From: a virus
DNA: 25,461 nucleotides
Strand: one strand, 5' to 3'
Virus record (IMG/VR): IMGVR_UViG_3300044971_001970
Location: 1 to 25,461 of that record
Shown here: one piece after another, positions 237-17,219 of the stretch
Position numbering within the stretch: the stretch's first letter is position 1
Layout: each line of letters opens with the position of its first letter
Notes under the pieces: model-generated
The model's input: only the letters and a program-made list of their open reading frames with translations
Told to the model about the DNA's origin: nothing
Database searches by the model: none
Program-made: the position numbers and the translations under genes

Positions 237-443
237 ATGAAAAAGAAAGATCTCCTTGTAACTAATTTGACACAGGTAGAACTATCAAATCTTTTAGGTG
301 TAACTCAACCACTGGTATCAAAATGGTTCTCTGGAAAGGTAATTCCTAGACCTGAAACTATTATGAAGTTATCAAATGCAACAGGTACACCTTATAAGGA
401 ATTAGTAACTTATTTTTATGACAACTATAAGAACCTGGAATGA
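237..443 (+). CDS. Small Cro/CI-type helix-turn-helix DNA-binding protein
   Basis: This 68-residue protein is almost entirely one helix-turn-helix domain of the XRE (lambda Cro/CI) type. Residues 11-33 read LTQVELSNLLGVTQPLVSKW, then FSGK. The ALGVSxxxVSxW-like pattern is the turn and recognition helix, and PRPETIMKLSNATGTPYKEL (about 38-56) forms the following helices. There is no dimerisation or cleavage domain, so it resembles a minimal Cro-like regulator. It lies 2 bases after the previous stop and overlaps the sigma factor start by 26 bases, which couples two transcription regulators in one transcript. I infer a role in switching phage gene expression. Its operator is not identifiable here. 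Confidence 0.8.
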   Translation: MKKKDLLVTNLTQVELSNLLGVTQPLVSKWFSGKVIPRPETIMKLSNATGTPYKELVTYFYDNYKNLE

Positions 444-1185
444 ATACAAAAGAAGATATAAAGATAAAAAACATTTAGACTCTGATTCTGAACATTGGTT
501 GATTAGTAAAGTAAATACTAAAGACAGAGAAAAAGCTTTAGATGAGTTAATCAGATTTAATCTTAATACAGTTCATTATATTGTTAATAAATACAAGTGG
601 TGTAATATTTCTTACGAAGATCTGGTTCAATATGGAGTTTTAGGAATTATAGCTGCAGCTGATAATTTTGATCTTACAAAAAATACTAAGTTTAATACAT
701 TTGCATATCATTACATATTAGGCAGAGTTAGAAGAGCATTAGAGTTATATAACAACATTATCAGATTACCTGCTCATATTAATCTTTCAATGGGAAAAAT
801 ATCTCATTTGGATGCAGAAGAAAATATACCTACAGAAGAACTTCTTAAACTTACAGACGATAGATACAAACTAAATCATCTTGAACAAGCATTAGTTGCT
901 AAAAGACAAAAGATAATTGATCTTGATGAAATATTTGATGTTCCTTCAGAACCTGAAAACAAAGATAGAAAGATTGTTGTCAAAGAGTTCTTAAAAGTAT
1001 TCTCAGATAGAGAACAAAAAATATTAGAATTAAAATATGGTTTTGAAAGTGGAGTTCTACATACACACAGAGAAATTGATAAAATATTAAATCTTGATTC
1101 GGAACAAATTGTTTATCACGCTTTCAAAAGAATTAAAAGAGATTATGATGTTGAATATTTGTTGGATTTACTAAGAGATGAGTAA
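418..1185 (+). CDS. Phage-encoded RNA polymerase sigma factor (sigma70 family)
   Basis: The 255-residue protein has the two hallmark regions of a sigma70-family factor. Region 2 is at about residues 43-110: NLNTVHYIVNKY, then EDLVQYGVLGIIAAADNFD for core-polymerase binding, and KFNTFAYHYILGRVRRALE for -10 recognition and melting. A short region-3-like stretch follows (RLPAHINLSMGKISHL, about 116-131). Region 4 is at about 193-245 (SDREQKILELKYGF and a final HTH with YHAFKRIKRDY). Region 1.1 is absent, as expected for an alternative factor. The ATG at 418 is the only ATG that keeps region 2 intact. It overlaps the HTH gene by 26 bases and the terminase small subunit gene by 8. I infer that it redirects host RNA polymerase to late promoters, like T4 gp55 in role; the TCGTAAAATAA sites in this window are candidate targets. 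Confidence 0.88.
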   Translation: MTTIRTWNEYKRRYKDKKHLDSDSEHWLISKVNTKDREKALDELIRFNLNTVHYIVNKYKWCNISYEDLVQYGVLGIIAAADNFDLTKNTKFNTFAYHYILGRVRRALELYNNIIRLPAHINLSMGKISHLDAEENIPTEELLKLTDDRYKLNHLEQALVAKRQKIIDLDEIFDVPSEPENKDRKIVVKEFLKVFSDREQKILELKYGFESGVLHTHREIDKILNLDSEQIVYHAFKRIKRDYDVEYLLDLLRDE

Positions 1186-2903: not shown

Positions 2904-3398
2904 ATGGCAAAACGTGGATATAAAGCTACTGAACCAATATTAAGGTTCAATGAAAAATATATTGTTGATTCTGAAACTGGGTGCTGGCAATGGATAGCTT
3001 CAAAAAATGAGCAAGGATATGGTAAGTTTTCAATAACAAGATGCAAATGGGTTCACGCTCATAGATTTGCATATGAATATTATGTAGGTCAAATTAATGA
3101 TTTATATGTCTTACACAAATGTGATAATCCAGCTTGTTGTAATCCAAATCATTTATTTTTAGGAACTCAAAAAGATAATATGATTGATTGTAAAAACAAA
3201 AACAGAAATCATAAACCTATTGGCGAATTATGTGGAAGACATATTTTAAAAGAAAATGAAGTAATAGAAATAAAAAAAAGATTACAAAATTTTAAATATG
3301 GTGATTGTTTAAAAATCTCTAAAGAATATGGAGTTGATCCAAGAACTATTTCTAATATCAAATGTGGAATAAATTGGACTCATATTCATATCTCGTAA
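2904..3398 (+). CDS. HNH homing-type endonuclease (copy 1)
   Basis: A 164-residue free-standing HNH nuclease of the type often inserted between phage structural genes. The N-terminal part has DSETGCWQWIASKNEQGYGKF, common before HNH cores in this family, then AHRFAYE. The core is VLHKCDNPACCNPNHL (about 69-84) with His71, Asn80/82 and His83, plus cysteines that may hold zinc. The C-terminal 55 residues (KENEVIEIKKRL, EYGVDPRTISNIKCGINWTHI) look like a small helix-turn-helix that would help target DNA. It starts right after the terL stop with no clear ribosome binding site, so translation is probably coupled. Its stop lies inside a TCGTAAAATAA element. It is paralogous to the gene at 9682-10137. 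Likely a selfish element rather than a virion component. Confidence 0.88.
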   Translation: MAKRGYKATEPILRFNEKYIVDSETGCWQWIASKNEQGYGKFSITRCKWVHAHRFAYEYYVGQINDLYVLHKCDNPACCNPNHLFLGTQKDNMIDCKNKNRNHKPIGELCGRHILKENEVIEIKKRLQNFKYGDCLKISKEYGVDPRTISNIKCGINWTHIHIS

Positions 3399-5094: not shown

Positions 5095-5289
5095 ATGAGC
5101 TGGCTAAGCAAGTTATTAAAGAAAAAAACTAATATTCCAGAAGTAAAAATACCTTTTGGTGAAGCTCAAATTTTAAATCAGATCGCTGACAACTTAAACT
5201 TTATGAGTACATCTGACCTTGAAAAACTTAGAGACCTTACAATTTTTGTTATTGATAAACGTGAACGTCAAAAGATAATGAAAGACTAA
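5095..5289 (+). CDS. Small protein whose two ends resemble the portal's ends
   Basis: A 64-residue protein starting 2 bases after the portal stop and ending at a strong terminator, so it is the last gene of the portal unit. No known domain was recognised. It has a basic N-terminus (MSWLSKLLKKK) and a helical middle with NQIADNLNFMSTSDLEKLRDL. Its C-terminus, DKRERQKIMKD, nearly matches the portal's KRERDKIMKDR, and its start resembles the portal's MGIFSNLFGRK. It may be a remnant of a portal duplication with the middle lost, or a small head protein sharing a docking peptide. I cannot choose between these. Confidence 0.72.
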   Translation: MSWLSKLLKKKTNIPEVKIPFGEAQILNQIADNLNFMSTSDLEKLRDLTIFVIDKRERQKIMKD

Positions 5290-5323
5290 TAAAAAAGGGG
5301 AGCAAATGCTCCCCTTTTTTATT
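5288..5323. terminator. Strong bidirectional rho-independent terminator
   Basis: A perfect 17-base inverted repeat: AATAAAAAAGGGGAGCA at 5288-5304 pairs with TGCTCCCCTTTTTTATT at 5307-5323 around a tiny loop. The GC-rich part (GGGGAGC) is flanked by A6 on the left and T6 on the right, so it should end transcripts from both directions. It separates the rightward portal unit from the convergent leftward gene ending at 5322. Confidence 0.95.
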
Positions 5324-5567
5324 ACTTTGGAAAATATCCAAAAAAACTATATATAAATCTTGTTCCATCATTGTTGAAATCTGGATCATATTTGCTAAAT
5401 ATTATATACTTAGCATTCATCTTACCATTATCTTCAACCTTCCAAACATCTTTTATTTCTAAATTATTCTTGACCATTGCAAGATACAGTTCGTCTAAAT
5501 ACTCACTATCAATATTCTTTGGCAATCTTTTTGGATTGTCTAAACTATAACCATTTACTCTTATCAT
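5322..5567 (-). CDS. Hypothetical 81-residue protein, the only leftward gene
   Basis: On the minus strand an ATG at 5567 is preceded by AAGGAA (minus strand of 5575-5580), 7 bases away, and the frame ends inside the shared terminator, both good signs of a real gene. The product is polar with charged and aromatic residues: MIRVNGYSLDNPKRLPKN, then EYLDELYLAMVKNNLEIKDVW, and an aromatic C-terminus (FIYSFFGYFPK). It may form a small mixed alpha/beta fold; no family was recognised, and there is no signal peptide or membrane helix. It is transcribed away from the early cassette at 5682-6818, so it probably belongs to the same inserted block. Confidence 0.78.
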   Translation of the reverse strand: MIRVNGYSLDNPKRLPKNIDSEYLDELYLAMVKNNLEIKDVWKVEDNGKMNAKYIIFSKYDPDFNNDGTRFIYSFFGYFPK

Positions 5568-5591
5568 TATCTATTTCCTTCTTACTCCTAT

Positions 5592-5619
5592 ATATTATCA
5601 CCTTTAAGGTAGTATGCAA
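5592..5619 (-). promoter_or_regulatory. Candidate promoter for the leftward gene
   Basis: Reading the minus strand, TTGCAT (5619-5614) and TAATAT (5597-5592) are spaced 16 bases apart, a fair sigma70-type match. The predicted start of RNA would lie just ahead of the AAGGAA site for the gene ending at 5322. The match is weaker than the rightward promoter, and other pairings are possible. Confidence 0.4.
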
Positions 5620-5634
5620 GTGGAAAAACTCACA

Positions 5635-5663
5635 TTGACAATATAACCTAAACGGTGTATAAT
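5635..5663 (+). promoter_or_regulatory. Consensus sigma70 promoter of the inserted small-gene cassette
   Basis: TTGACA at 5635-5640, a 17-base spacer, and TATAAT at 5658-5663: both hexamers and the spacing are exact consensus. RNA should start near 5669-5671, so the GTG at 5655 cannot be the start of the first gene. GAGG at 5672-5675 then serves the GTG at 5682. A perfect host-type promoter in the middle of the late structural genes implies independent, probably early and strong, expression. Confidence 0.93.
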
Positions 5664-5681
5664 ATCTTTGTGAGGTTAACA

Positions 5682-5927
5682 GTGAAAGAGAAGTATAGGT
5701 TCAACTACGAAGAAGTTGATAAATGTTGCAAAGATGAAATGTTGTGGATATTCGATAACTTTGTTGTTGGTATAGGCAAAACAGGTGATCATTTTGTTCT
5801 AAATCATTACGGTAAAGATTTTGACAAAACCAACTATGTAAAGGTAGAGTTAGATTATTCTATAGACGATTACGATAGACAATATATGGAGTGGGTTTTT
5901 AGTGAAATGGAGCATTGGTACTTATGA
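5682..5927 (+). CDS. Hypothetical 81-residue acidic protein, first gene of the early cassette
   Basis: I start this gene at the GTG at 5682 (VKEKYRFNYEEVDKC). It has GAGG 6 bases upstream and is the first in-frame start lying well inside the predicted transcript; the in-frame GTGs at 5655 and 5670 fall before or at the expected RNA start. The product is rich in Asp, Glu, Tyr and Phe, with CC near residues 14-15, IFDNFVVGIGKTGDHFVLNHYG in the middle (split, about 23-44) and an aromatic C-terminus (MEWVFSEMEHWYL). No family was recognised. The stop overlaps the next ATG (ATGA). Small acidic early phage proteins often block host proteins, but that is only a general expectation here. Confidence 0.75.
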   Translation: MKEKYRFNYEEVDKCCKDEMLWIFDNFVVGIGKTGDHFVLNHYGKDFDKTNYVKVELDYSIDDYDRQYMEWVFSEMEHWYL

Positions 5928-6046
5928 CAGAACAAGAACATATCCTATCTTGGGTTAATATCTTTAGAGCACTTGGCGAAAAAGAAATGAATATTATATT
6001 AACAGCTATAGATATTTACAAAAAGGGAATGAACAATGCTAAATAA
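5924..6046 (+). CDS. Hypothetical 40-residue protein
   Basis: A short open frame with ATG at 5924 overlapping the previous stop (ATGA) and its own stop overlapping the next start by 11 bases, so it fills an otherwise empty 108-base gap between two genes. The product, MTEQEHILSWVNIFRALGEK and then EMNIILTAIDIYKKGMNNAK, should be helical and amphipathic. GGAG at 5909-5912 is 11 bases upstream. The tight fit between neighbours is the main support. Function unknown. Confidence 0.65.
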   Translation: MTEQEHILSWVNIFRALGEKEMNIILTAIDIYKKGMNNAK

Positions 6047-6332
6047 GAAATATATTACAAGAACAGACTTGAAGGTAGCTGGTTTTTCCAACCTTGAGTT
6101 CACCTTAAATCGTCTTGAAAACAAAGTACATTTAACTGCTGACTATACTATTGATATTGGCAAAGTTAAATACAAGATAAATTTTGAAGTAGAAACACAA
6201 CTAGAAAGAACATCGCAAAGGAGTATTGAAAAGCTTTGCAGAATGATGTTGGAAAAATTAGTATTGTTTCAAACCTTAAAATCAGGTGAACAAAAGAAAT
6301 TTGCATTAGAGAATGGATACGTTGTAGCTTAA
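6036..6332 (+). CDS. Hypothetical 98-residue protein
   Basis: The ATG at 6036 has AGGGA about 7 bases upstream. The product starts MLNKKYITRTDLKVAGFSNL. Residues 20-57 alternate charged and hydrophobic residues (FTLNRLENKVHLTADYTI, then KVKYKINFEVETQL), suggesting a beta-sheet, followed by a helix (RSIEKLCRMMLEKLVLFQTL). No family was recognised, and there is no membrane segment or signal peptide. Its stop shares one base with the next ATG (TAATG), so all members of this cassette are translationally coupled. Confidence 0.72.
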   Translation: MLNKKYITRTDLKVAGFSNLEFTLNRLENKVHLTADYTIDIGKVKYKINFEVETQLERTSQRSIEKLCRMMLEKLVLFQTLKSGEQKKFALENGYVVA

Positions 6333-6601
6333 TGTTTGATATAGTACTTGCTTTTGATAAGGATCACGGTTGTCAAAATTGTATGAATCAATACAAAAAG
6401 ACATTCTTGTTTAAAAGATTCTTAGATTTATCTTTTGTTCCTACCTTTTTTCTTGTGAAAGATATTTGTAAGAAGTTAGATCCTAGTAAATTTGATGTTA
6501 ATGTTCATATAAGCGAAGAGATGGTTCCTCTTTGTTATGAATGTTTTTACGATAAAAACAACTTAGTAAAAATCAAAAGGTTATTAAATGACAGATATTA
6601 A
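6332..6601 (+). CDS. Small protein with two CxxC pairs (possible zinc ribbon)
   Basis: An 89-residue protein with CQNC at residues 14-17 and CYEC at 68-71, the four-cysteine arrangement of zinc-ribbon or rubredoxin-like knuckles. The 50-residue gap between pairs is long, so the pairs may close a small globular fold. The segment between is hydrophobic and basic (TFLFKRFLDLSFVPTFFLVK). It starts at TAATG overlapping the previous gene and overlaps the next by 14 bases. Zinc knuckles in small early phage proteins can serve DNA, RNA or protein binding; I cannot tell which here. Confidence 0.72.
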   Translation: MFDIVLAFDKDHGCQNCMNQYKKTFLFKRFLDLSFVPTFFLVKDICKKLDPSKFDVNVHISEEMVPLCYECFYDKNNLVKIKRLLNDRY

Positions 6602-6818
6602 TTATGATTGCTACAAAAGTGTTTTACTTGATAATTACATTTTACGAGAAGAAATAAAAGATTTAAAAAAAGAATGTCAATTATGGAAAGATAAATATAT
6701 CCAAGAAAAGATGGATCACACTACTACCAAATGTAGAGCAGTATTTGCTAAAAAAATATTATCTGGTGAAAGAGATGAAAGAATTTTAGAGCATTTAGAT
6801 ATAACCTTAAATGGGTAA
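6588..6818 (+). CDS. Hypothetical 76-residue protein with a coiled-coil segment
   Basis: The last gene of the small-gene cassette. The ATG at 6588 overlaps the previous gene by 14 bases. The residues NYILREEIKDLKKECQLWKDKYIQEKM (about 16-42) have the heptad-like pattern of a short coiled coil, so it may dimerise. The rest is charged (FAKKILSGERDERILEHLDI). No family was recognised. It is followed by 63 non-coding bases carrying the TCGTAAAATAA element of the protease gene, and I see no terminator in that gap. Confidence 0.7.
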   Translation: MTDINYDCYKSVLLDNYILREEIKDLKKECQLWKDKYIQEKMDHTTTKCRAVFAKKILSGERDERILEHLDITLNG

Positions 6819-6840
6819 TAGTTTTAATTTATCTAATTTA

Positions 6841-6851
6841 TCGTAAAATAA
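6841..6851 (+). promoter_or_regulatory. Candidate phage late promoter upstream of protease and capsid genes
   Basis: TCGTAAAATAA, identical to 3393-3403 and 10144-10154, starting 41 bases before the protease ATG, exactly the portal spacing. AAGGA at 6870-6874 follows. It lies in a non-coding gap, so the match is not forced by coding. A weak alternative sigma70-like -10 (TATAAG, near 6855) is possible. In the late-promoter model this site restarts structural transcription after the terminator at 5288-5323. Confidence 0.6.
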
Positions 6852-6881
6852 TTTATAAGATACTGTTACAAGGATAATTTT

Positions 6882-9681: not shown

Positions 9682-10137
9682 ATGCCTAAAAAAGAAGACC
9701 CGTTAATAAGATTTCATCGTAAATATGAAATTGATTCAGAAACTGGTTGTTGGTTATGGATAGGAAGTTTTTTTAATTCTGGTTATCCAAGATTTAAACT
9801 AAATAAAAAAGATTTATATTCTCACAGATTTTCATATGAGACTTTTGTTGGTTCTTTAAATCCAAAACTTGAGATATGTCATTGTTGCAATAATAAAGCT
9901 TGTGTAAATCCAAATCATCTACGTCAAGATACAAGCTCTTCAAATAGTATTGATAGAAGTTATGATTTTTCACAAAATGGTCAAAAACTTACATCACAAC
10001 AAGTAAAAGAAATTAAAATTGAATTACAAAATCCATATAGAGGATTAAATAAAATATTATCAATAAAATATGGAGTAGATTCTTCTACTATAACTGCTAT
10101 AAAAATAGGTAAATCTTGGTCTCATTTAAAAATCTAA
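9682..10137 (+). CDS. HNH homing-type endonuclease (copy 2)
   Basis: A 151-residue paralogue of the HNH protein at 2904-3398. They share IDSETGCWLWI near the N-terminus, HRFSYETFVG (about 48-57) and the core ICHCCNNKACVNPNHL (about 65-80) with His67, Asn77 and His79. The C-terminal half (TSQQVKEIKIELQNPYRGLN, then KYGVDSSTITAIKIGKSWSHL) is a helix-turn-helix like that of copy 1. It probably cleaves a specific site in related phages that lack it. The start has no ribosome binding site and coincides with a predicted transcription start, suggesting leaderless translation. It sits between the capsid terminator and the connector promoter element, so it is independent of the structural units. Confidence 0.87.
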   Translation: MPKKEDPLIRFHRKYEIDSETGCWLWIGSFFNSGYPRFKLNKKDLYSHRFSYETFVGSLNPKLEICHCCNNKACVNPNHLRQDTSSSNSIDRSYDFSQNGQKLTSQQVKEIKIELQNPYRGLNKILSIKYGVDSSTITAIKIGKSWSHLKI

Positions 10138-16659: not shown

Positions 16660-17040
16660 ATGATTAAAGGTCTCTCTAAGATTAAAAAAGTTAGTCTTCG
16701 TCCATCTATTAAAATTGATTTAAGTGATTATGCTGAAGAAGAATGTTTTGTAGAATTGTCTGAACCAACAGCAGCAGCTTTGTTTCCAGATACTGCAACA
16801 TTGCAAAGTCTTAAAATCAAGTTTCCAACATTTCCAGAAGCAATGATTTATCAAATTGTTCTTATGGGTAAATGTTATGTTACACAGAAGGATGATCCTG
16901 ATTCAATTAATCCTATGATTGACTTTGCTAATATAGCTAAAAGCAATAAAGATTGTTTTTATTATATCCTTACTGAGTTCTTGAATGCATATCCAACTGC
17001 AGATTTTGATAGTAGAGTAACAGAAGCAAAAAACGGTTAA
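16660..17040 (+). CDS. Tail assembly chaperone, short form (gpG-like)
   Basis: A 126-residue, mostly helical and acidic protein between the tail tube and tape measure genes, the standard position of the gpG-type chaperone. It contains IKIDLSDYAEEECFVELSEP near the start, FPEAMIYQIVLMGKCYVTQK in the middle and SNKDCFYYILTEFLNAYPTA near the end. AAGGA lies shortly before the ATG at 16660. It ends in a TAA at 17038, four bases after an A AAA AAC slippery site, so most ribosomes should make this short form. It would coat the tape measure protein and recruit tube subunits. Confidence 0.85.
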   Translation: MIKGLSKIKKVSLRPSIKIDLSDYAEEECFVELSEPTAAALFPDTATLQSLKIKFPTFPEAMIYQIVLMGKCYVTQKDDPDSINPMIDFANIAKSNKDCFYYILTEFLNAYPTADFDSRVTEAKNG

Positions 17041-17219
17041 TCGGATGTTCTCCGCAAGTACTTTATTATTGTGTAAGGTATTTAAAGAGGCATCCGAGTG
17101 AAACCGACCTAACTCTTCATCAAATAGCAGAAGTAGCATATGTAGCAAGAGAAATTGAAAAGGCAGAAGCTGAACAGGCTAATGCTATTTTAAAAGCATT
17201 ATTAGGAAGTAGACTATGA
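16660..17219 (+). CDS. Tail assembly chaperone, long frameshifted form (gpGT-like)
   Basis: A -1 slip on A AAA AAC at 17028-17034 carries ribosomes past the TAA at 17038 and adds 61 residues, for a fused 186-residue protein. The extension (RLIGCSPQVLYYCVRYLKRH, then LTLHQIAEVAYVAREIEKAE and a helical end, AILKALLGSRL) has no good start codon of its own. It is well formed and ends exactly at the tape measure start (ATGA overlap), as expected for the T domain, which binds tube subunits in lambda. The CDS is joined across the shift: 16660-17034, then 17034-17219, reading base 17034 twice. Confidence 0.85.
17028..17106 (+). other. Programmed -1 frameshift element (slippery site plus stem)
   Basis: The heptamer A AAA AAC is in the correct frame at 17028-17034. 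Six bases later TCGGATG (17041-17047) pairs perfectly with CATCCGA (17091-17097). A further pairing of CGGTT (17034-17038) with AACCG (17102-17106) extends the same stem across a small internal loop. Inside the loop TACTTT (17059-17064) can pair with AAGGTA (17075-17080), with one G-U. The spacer and stem are typical of frameshift stimulators. Confidence 0.88.

What the first reader, a model, noticed from the sequence alone, without database searches (positions are those of the whole stretch)
5322..6818. Host-promoter-driven cassette of six small unknown genes inside the head operon
Between portal and protease, which are usually adjacent, lies a block with a perfect TTGACA-N17-TATAAT promoter, a divergent leftward gene, five overlapping rightward genes, a bidirectional terminator on its left and the late element on its right. 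None of the proteins is recognisable. This is the layout of a moron or early-function island and is the best place in the window for an undescribed activity, for example host takeover or counter-defence.
Basis: partly seen in the sequence, partly recalled or inferred. Interest (0 to 1): 0.78.

Follow-up and report, generated by a model that had tools for sequence, protein, structure and literature searches.

The report
Accessory-gene locus between phage head genes
Between two head genes of an uncultivated group of bacterial viruses lies a fixed site where small unknown genes are swapped in and out behind shared early-type promoters, sometimes together with DNA-modifying enzymes, which makes it a good place to look for new ways in which phages defeat bacterial defences.

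Summary
In detail: a perfect TTGACA-N17-TATAAT promoter (the only one in 25 kb), a bidirectional terminator, one leftward and five rightward small genes and a conserved late element lie between portal and protease. Relatives in IMG/VR show what it is: a conserved accessory locus, about 1.8-3.6 kb, not seen in the nearest isolated phages. It has two halves. The leftward half is a stack of single-gene morons (promoter-gene-terminator) behind one recognisable promoter; 27 units carry 11 protein families, and closely related phages differ in the genes while keeping the promoter/terminator seams. The window's cA is such a unit. The rightward half is an operon started by TATAAC-N8/9-GTATAAT, usually exactly 6 nt before the start codon (probably leaderless). 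Its core is cD (confident alpha-beta3-alpha-alpha model), cE (four invariant cysteines) and cF (coiled coil); relatives add DNA methyltransferases and HNH genes. The genes are under purifying selection. None of the six proteins matches a known family. Most likely an early counter-defence locus; timing and function are inferred from position, promoters and linked methyltransferases, not shown. New variant of a known kind (moron island / anti-defence regulon).

The parts
5287..5324 (.). Bidirectional terminator ending the portal/p64 transcript and the leftward cA unit
   Evidence: 17-pair stem with T-run on both strands; terminators at the same place in relatives
5322..5567 (-). cA, 81 aa, leftward single-gene moron
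   Evidence: Homologues in L041 (68%), L017, L029 follow the shared cassette promoter; dN/dS 0.14-0.31
5575..5619 (-). cA promoter region, a diverged copy of the shared cassette promoter (TTGCAT..GATAATATATAGGAGTAAGAAGG)
   Evidence: Local alignment to the cassette consensus scores 38; 0 of 500 shuffles reach it
5635..5663 (+). Perfect sigma-70-type promoter with the box TATAAC-N9-GTATAAT (5642-5663) in and behind the spacer
   Evidence: same box at the start of the rightward operon in relatives
5670..5927 (+). cB, up to 85 aa, acidic (pI 4.8); start GTG 5670 (leaderless) or GTG 5682
   Evidence: Homologues in L037 and L035; dN/dS 0.35
5924..6046 (+). cC, 40 aa
   Evidence: Homologues in L037 and L035 at the same place
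6036..6332 (+). cD, 98 aa, core gene of the locus; predicted helix - three long strands - two helices
   Evidence: Family in 16 loci; AlphaFold2 mean pLDDT 92; dN/dS 0.09-0.29
6332..6601 (+). cE, 89 aa, CxxC...CxxC protein, zinc-ribbon-like (zinc binding inferred)
   Evidence: Four cysteines invariant in 12 family members; dN/dS 0.18-0.34
6588..6818 (+). cF, 76 aa, coiled-coil-like with conserved C-terminal EKxDHTxTKCRxxFAxxILxGxRDE
   Evidence: Family in 13 loci; dN/dS 0.18-0.31
6800..6820 (+). Element TATAAC-N8-GGTAATA overlapping the end of cF, conserved upstream of protease in relatives; role unknown
6839..6860 (+). Late element TATCGTAAAATAATTTATAAGA, right border of the block

Best explanation
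The block is this phage's copy of a lineage-specific early accessory locus fixed between portal and protease. After DNA entry, host RNA polymerase would read two divergent transcripts from it: a leftward single-gene moron (cA), stopped by the terminator at 5287-5324, and a rightward operon cB-cC-cD-cE-cF started at 5635-5663. Later a phage sigma factor (gene 418-1185) would read the late elements before portal, protease and connector. The products most likely act as counter-defence: small proteins that block restriction or other immune systems, with cD, cE and cF as a kept core and the other genes as exchangeable cargo. Shown by computation: the anatomy, the conserved site and promoters, purifying selection, different leftward genes between close relatives joined at shared promoter/terminator seams, and DNA methyltransferases in relatives' copies. 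Inferred: early timing, use of host sigma-70, leaderless starts, the sigma-factor/late-box pairing, exchange by homologous recombination at the seams, and the counter-defence function.
For: Variable small-gene block at one site in every relative that spans it, absent or a single gene in the nearest isolates. Same promoter box at the start of the rightward operon: 13 hits in 15 contigs, 0 in the reversed-pattern control. Leftward units: 27 units, 11 protein families, promoter block 66% identical and gene body 30% between families; 16 of the 18 stretches found with that promoter pattern among 2.9 million viral contigs are from this group. Gene replacement between seams: L017/L015 and L030/L038. 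N6/N4 and D12 DNA methyltransferases in relatives' islands. Purifying selection, dN/dS 0.09-0.35. GC lower than in neighbouring head genes.
Against: None of the six proteins matches a known anti-defence or other family, and the window's own copy carries no methyltransferase. cD is kept in almost all relatives, which is unusual for pure cargo. No expression data; host unknown; all contigs are fragments.
Confidence: 0.6

Rival explanations
1. Host-takeover core: cD, cE and cF are conserved early modifiers of host machinery (for example transcription or translation) needed for efficient infection, and only the leftward morons and the methyltransferases are accessory.
For: cD, the four-cysteine family and cF are kept in most relatives at this site; the same promoter box also precedes an early gene next to the Xre/sigma operon.
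Against: L014 and L026 lack a recognisable cD and L017 a recognisable four-cysteine gene and full-length cF; no known host-targeting family is matched.
Confidence: 0.25
2. Head-assembly accessories: the products are chaperones, scaffold or decoration proteins of the head made from an extra promoter.
For: Position between portal and protease; no terminator between cF and protease in this window.
Against: Own early-type promoter and left terminator, gene content that differs between relatives with similar head proteins, methyltransferases and HNH genes as neighbours, a terminator on the right in some relatives.
Confidence: 0.08
3. Lysogenic-conversion morons: the genes are expressed from a prophage to benefit the host.
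For: Promoter-gene-terminator form is the classic moron form (PMC4378225); an Xre-like repressor gene is present.
Against: No relatives found in 84,980 bacterial and archaeal genomes with capsid or terminase probes; no integrase was noticed in the ORF lists of the contigs read, though these are incomplete.
Confidence: 0.05

Closest known systems
Anti-defence gene regulons of archaeal viruses (SIRV2, SIFV2 and others; PMC11065993)
   Same: Many small, mostly unrelated accessory genes, most of them single-gene units, each behind a nearly identical early promoter with a conserved regulatory sequence
   Different: Archaeal promoters and hosts; there early expression and some functions were measured, here neither; here the units also share a terminator design and sit at one site inside the head operon
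Morons of lambdoid and other phages
   Same: Gene with its own promoter and terminator inserted between two genes that are neighbours in related phages, with deviating base composition (definition in PMC4378225)
   Different: Usually single and unrelated in their promoters; here tandem units share one promoter sequence, next to a conserved core operon
Anti-CRISPR accessory region of Pseudomonas Mu-like phages (RGP G, PMC4378225)
   Same: Variable low-GC accessory region at a fixed genome site holding small inhibitor genes
   Different: No sequence relation detected; no aca-like repressor gene recognised in the block; inhibitors there are proven
Start-associated sequences (SAS/ESAS) of Cluster K mycobacteriophages (PMC3203893)
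   Same: Phage-group-specific repeated elements at the starts of many small genes
   Different: Different sequences, proposed to act in translation initiation; here the repeat is the promoter itself
Boundary sequences proposed for phage mosaicism (PMC3029335)
   Same: Short shared sequences at module borders that allow homologous exchange
   Different: Here the shared border is the promoter/terminator seam itself

Membership tests
Moron | Inserted between two genes that are adjacent in related phages | tested here: met
   Portal and protease adjacent in Sinorhizobium phage Aussie and Microcystis phage Mwe-Yong1; one gene between in two others
Moron | Own promoter and terminator | tested here: met
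   cA and 27 units of relatives; the rightward operon has its own promoter but no right terminator in this window
Moron | Present in some, absent or replaced in other closely related genomes | tested here: met
   Met for the leftward units, methyltransferases, cB and cC; cD, cE and cF families are kept in most relatives
Moron | Deviating base composition | tested here: met
   GC 0.26-0.31 in the block against 0.34-0.43 in portal, protease and capsid
Anti-defence gene regulon | Several unrelated small genes behind a shared early promoter | tested here: met
   Shared promoter met; early timing not measured
Anti-defence gene regulon | Expression right after infection | not testable with these tools
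   Needs RNA-seq in the unknown host
Anti-defence gene regulon | Products inhibit a defence system | not testable with these tools
   Only indirect: DNA methyltransferases in relatives' copies
Anti-CRISPR locus (acr-aca) | Known Acr or an HTH Aca gene in the operon | tested here: not met
   No Pfam, PHROG, NCBIfam or PADLOC match for the six proteins
Prophage conversion genes | Carried by a temperate phage | tested here: inconclusive
   No prophage relatives found, but contigs are incomplete

The most novel reading that the evidence does not exclude
The locus is a counter-defence regulon of a bacterial phage built as an exchangeable array: unrelated inhibitor genes sit behind one diagnostic promoter and are swapped by homologous recombination at the promoter/terminator seams, so that the promoter sequence alone can be used to find new inhibitors; the TATAAC box is the site of a regulator of this phage group.
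Probability: 0.35. Interest if true: 0.75.

Novelty: new variant of a known kind. Interest (0 to 1): 0.57.

Why it matters
It gives a fixed genome address and a promoter signature for at least 11 leftward and several rightward families of unknown small phage proteins, beside DNA methyltransferases, and a natural series of gene swaps showing how phages may exchange such genes without a recombinase of their own. Each family can be tested singly against cloned defence systems, and the promoter can be used to mine further genes.

Tried and rejected
Pfam, PHROGs, NCBIfam and PADLOC gave only weak matches for the six proteins; the aminotransferase matches of cB (about 35 residues, E about 1e-4 to 1e-2, far below cut-off) were set aside as a chance local match. 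tblastn of cB, cD and cE against 50,697 phage records found nothing beyond that. Fold search with the good cD model gave no significant match, only low-scoring small alpha-beta folds (RAD52, dsRBD-like), not used as evidence; profile search of the PDB likewise. The cB model is too poor to search (pLDDT 59). The cD family alignment was too diverse for a viral scan; single members found only loci already known or near copies. Bacterial and archaeal genomes searched for prophage relatives with capsid and terminase: none. No tRNA in the window and no Rfam element in the block. Promoter scan allowing mismatches is at chance level (22 found, 21.9 expected) and the TATAAC box with two mismatches is too, so only the perfect site and cross-genome conservation were used. 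Two of 18 stretches found with the cassette promoter pattern (L076, and L077 where it precedes a tRNA-like sequence) look unrelated and were left out.

Full report
Setting. The window is a 25.5-kb virus record from IMG/VR. It reads: a 61-aa gene, an Xre-like repressor (PF01381), a sigma-70-family factor (PF04542; TIGR02937), small and large terminase, an HNH gene, portal (PF04860), a 64-aa protein, the block in question, protease (PF04586), capsid (PF05065), a second HNH gene and tail genes (terminases and HNH by comparison with relatives, and by eye).

The promoter at 5635-5663 is a perfect sigma-70 consensus and the only one in the window; 2 of 100 shuffles have one. The palindrome at 5287-5324 is terminator-like in both directions. 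All six genes score best in the annotated frame by the phage's own codon use. The late element TCGTAAAATAA occurs three times in the window, before portal, protease and the connector gene; no shuffle reaches that, and it stands before protease in all 27 relatives that reach so far. cB should start at GTG 5670 or GTG 5682; the mechanical start at 5655 lies in the promoter.

Relatives. Capsid, portal and cD probes found about 40 related IMG/VR contigs. One (L002) is 99.9% identical over 8.3 kb, cassette included. In the others portal and capsid can be over 90% identical while the interval between portal and protease holds a different set of small genes, 1.8-3.6 kb long where both ends are covered. 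In the nearest isolates portal and protease are adjacent (Sinorhizobium phage Aussie, Microcystis phage Mwe-Yong1) or have one gene between them (Synechococcus phage Sc-Yong805-2; a phage from Manatee Spring). The locus as such therefore belongs to this uncultivated group.

Leftward half. In many relatives it is a stack of one to three single-gene units, each of the form terminator - TTGCAnnnnnnTATAACnTATGCTATTATA - gene - terminator, the T-run of one terminator running straight into the next promoter. A scan of 2.9 million viral contigs with the promoter pattern returned 18 stretches, 16 of them from this group. The 27 units encode 11 protein families; between families the 70-nt promoter block is on average 66% identical and the gene body 30%. 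Close pairs show exchange: L017 and L015 have flanks 82-97% identical but different leftward genes, with a 72-nt promoter/terminator seam aligned between them; L030 and L038 (94-95% flanks) likewise with a 63-nt seam. cA belongs here: its homologues in L017, L029 and L041 follow this promoter, and its own upstream region is a diverged copy of it (0 of 500 shuffles as good).

Rightward half. The operon starts at TATAAC-N8/9-GTATAAT in the relatives that reach that far; this pattern occurs 13 times in 15 contigs and its reversed control never. It also precedes an early gene near the Xre/sigma operon in other contigs of the group. In most copies, and in the promoter of the Xre/sigma operon, the -10 hexamer ends exactly 6 nt before the start codon, so the start codon should be the first base of the transcript: probably leaderless mRNAs, inferred from spacing only. 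Core genes are the families of cD (16 loci), of a CxxC...CxxC protein of which cE is a longer form (four cysteines invariant in 12 members), and of cF (13 loci). Relatives insert N6/N4-type or D12-type DNA methyltransferases, an FkbM-like methyltransferase reading leftward (weak), and HNH genes. cB and cC occur in three genomes. dN/dS of 0.09-0.35 shows that the genes make working proteins.

Structure. cD is predicted with confidence (mean pLDDT 92) as a helix, three long strands and two helices; no PDB or viral model matches significantly. cB could not be modelled well.

How it works. Early, host-polymerase-driven expression is inferred from the promoter type and from the contrast with the late element, which I assign, by inference, to the phage's own sigma factor. 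Counter-defence is inferred from the variable content, low GC, the DNA methyltransferases, and the analogy with archaeal viruses, in which a shared early promoter marks many single, unrelated anti-defence genes (PMC11065993), and with the anti-CRISPR region of Mu-like phages (PMC4378225). Exchange by homologous recombination at short shared boundaries has been proposed for phage mosaicism (PMC3029335); here such boundaries are visible.

Limits. All contigs are fragments, the host is unknown, no prophage relative was found, and there are no expression or activity data. The function is an inference; the anatomy, the conservation and the gene replacement are results.

Noticed in passing
window 16660-17215: A slippery A AAA AAC at about 17028-17034 just before the stop of the 126-aa gene, with an open -1 frame running to 17215: probable programmed frameshift of a tail assembly chaperone.
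   Followed up: partly
window 418-1185 with 3393, 6841, 10144: A phage sigma factor gene and three copies of a late element conserved across the group: a likely phage sigma factor / late promoter pair that could be tested in vitro.
   Followed up: partly
window 2904-3398 and 9682-10137; L009, L013, L021, L035: HNH genes inserted beside terminase, capsid or within the island in different relatives; the two in the window are each followed directly by a late element.
   Followed up: no
window 6800-6820 and the same place in relatives: TATAAC-N8-GTGTAATA-like element about 40 nt before the late element at the protease gene, conserved in most relatives; resembles the island promoter box with two bases missing; role unknown.
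   Followed up: partly
L037 1211, L054 6097, L055 3237: Promoter of the Xre/sigma operon carries a palindrome ATAAC-N7-GTTAT between the -35 and -10 boxes, a possible Xre operator.
   Followed up: no
window 5627-5677: Imperfect inverted repeat AACTCACA...TGTGAGGTT flanks the island promoter; operator or chance.
   Followed up: no
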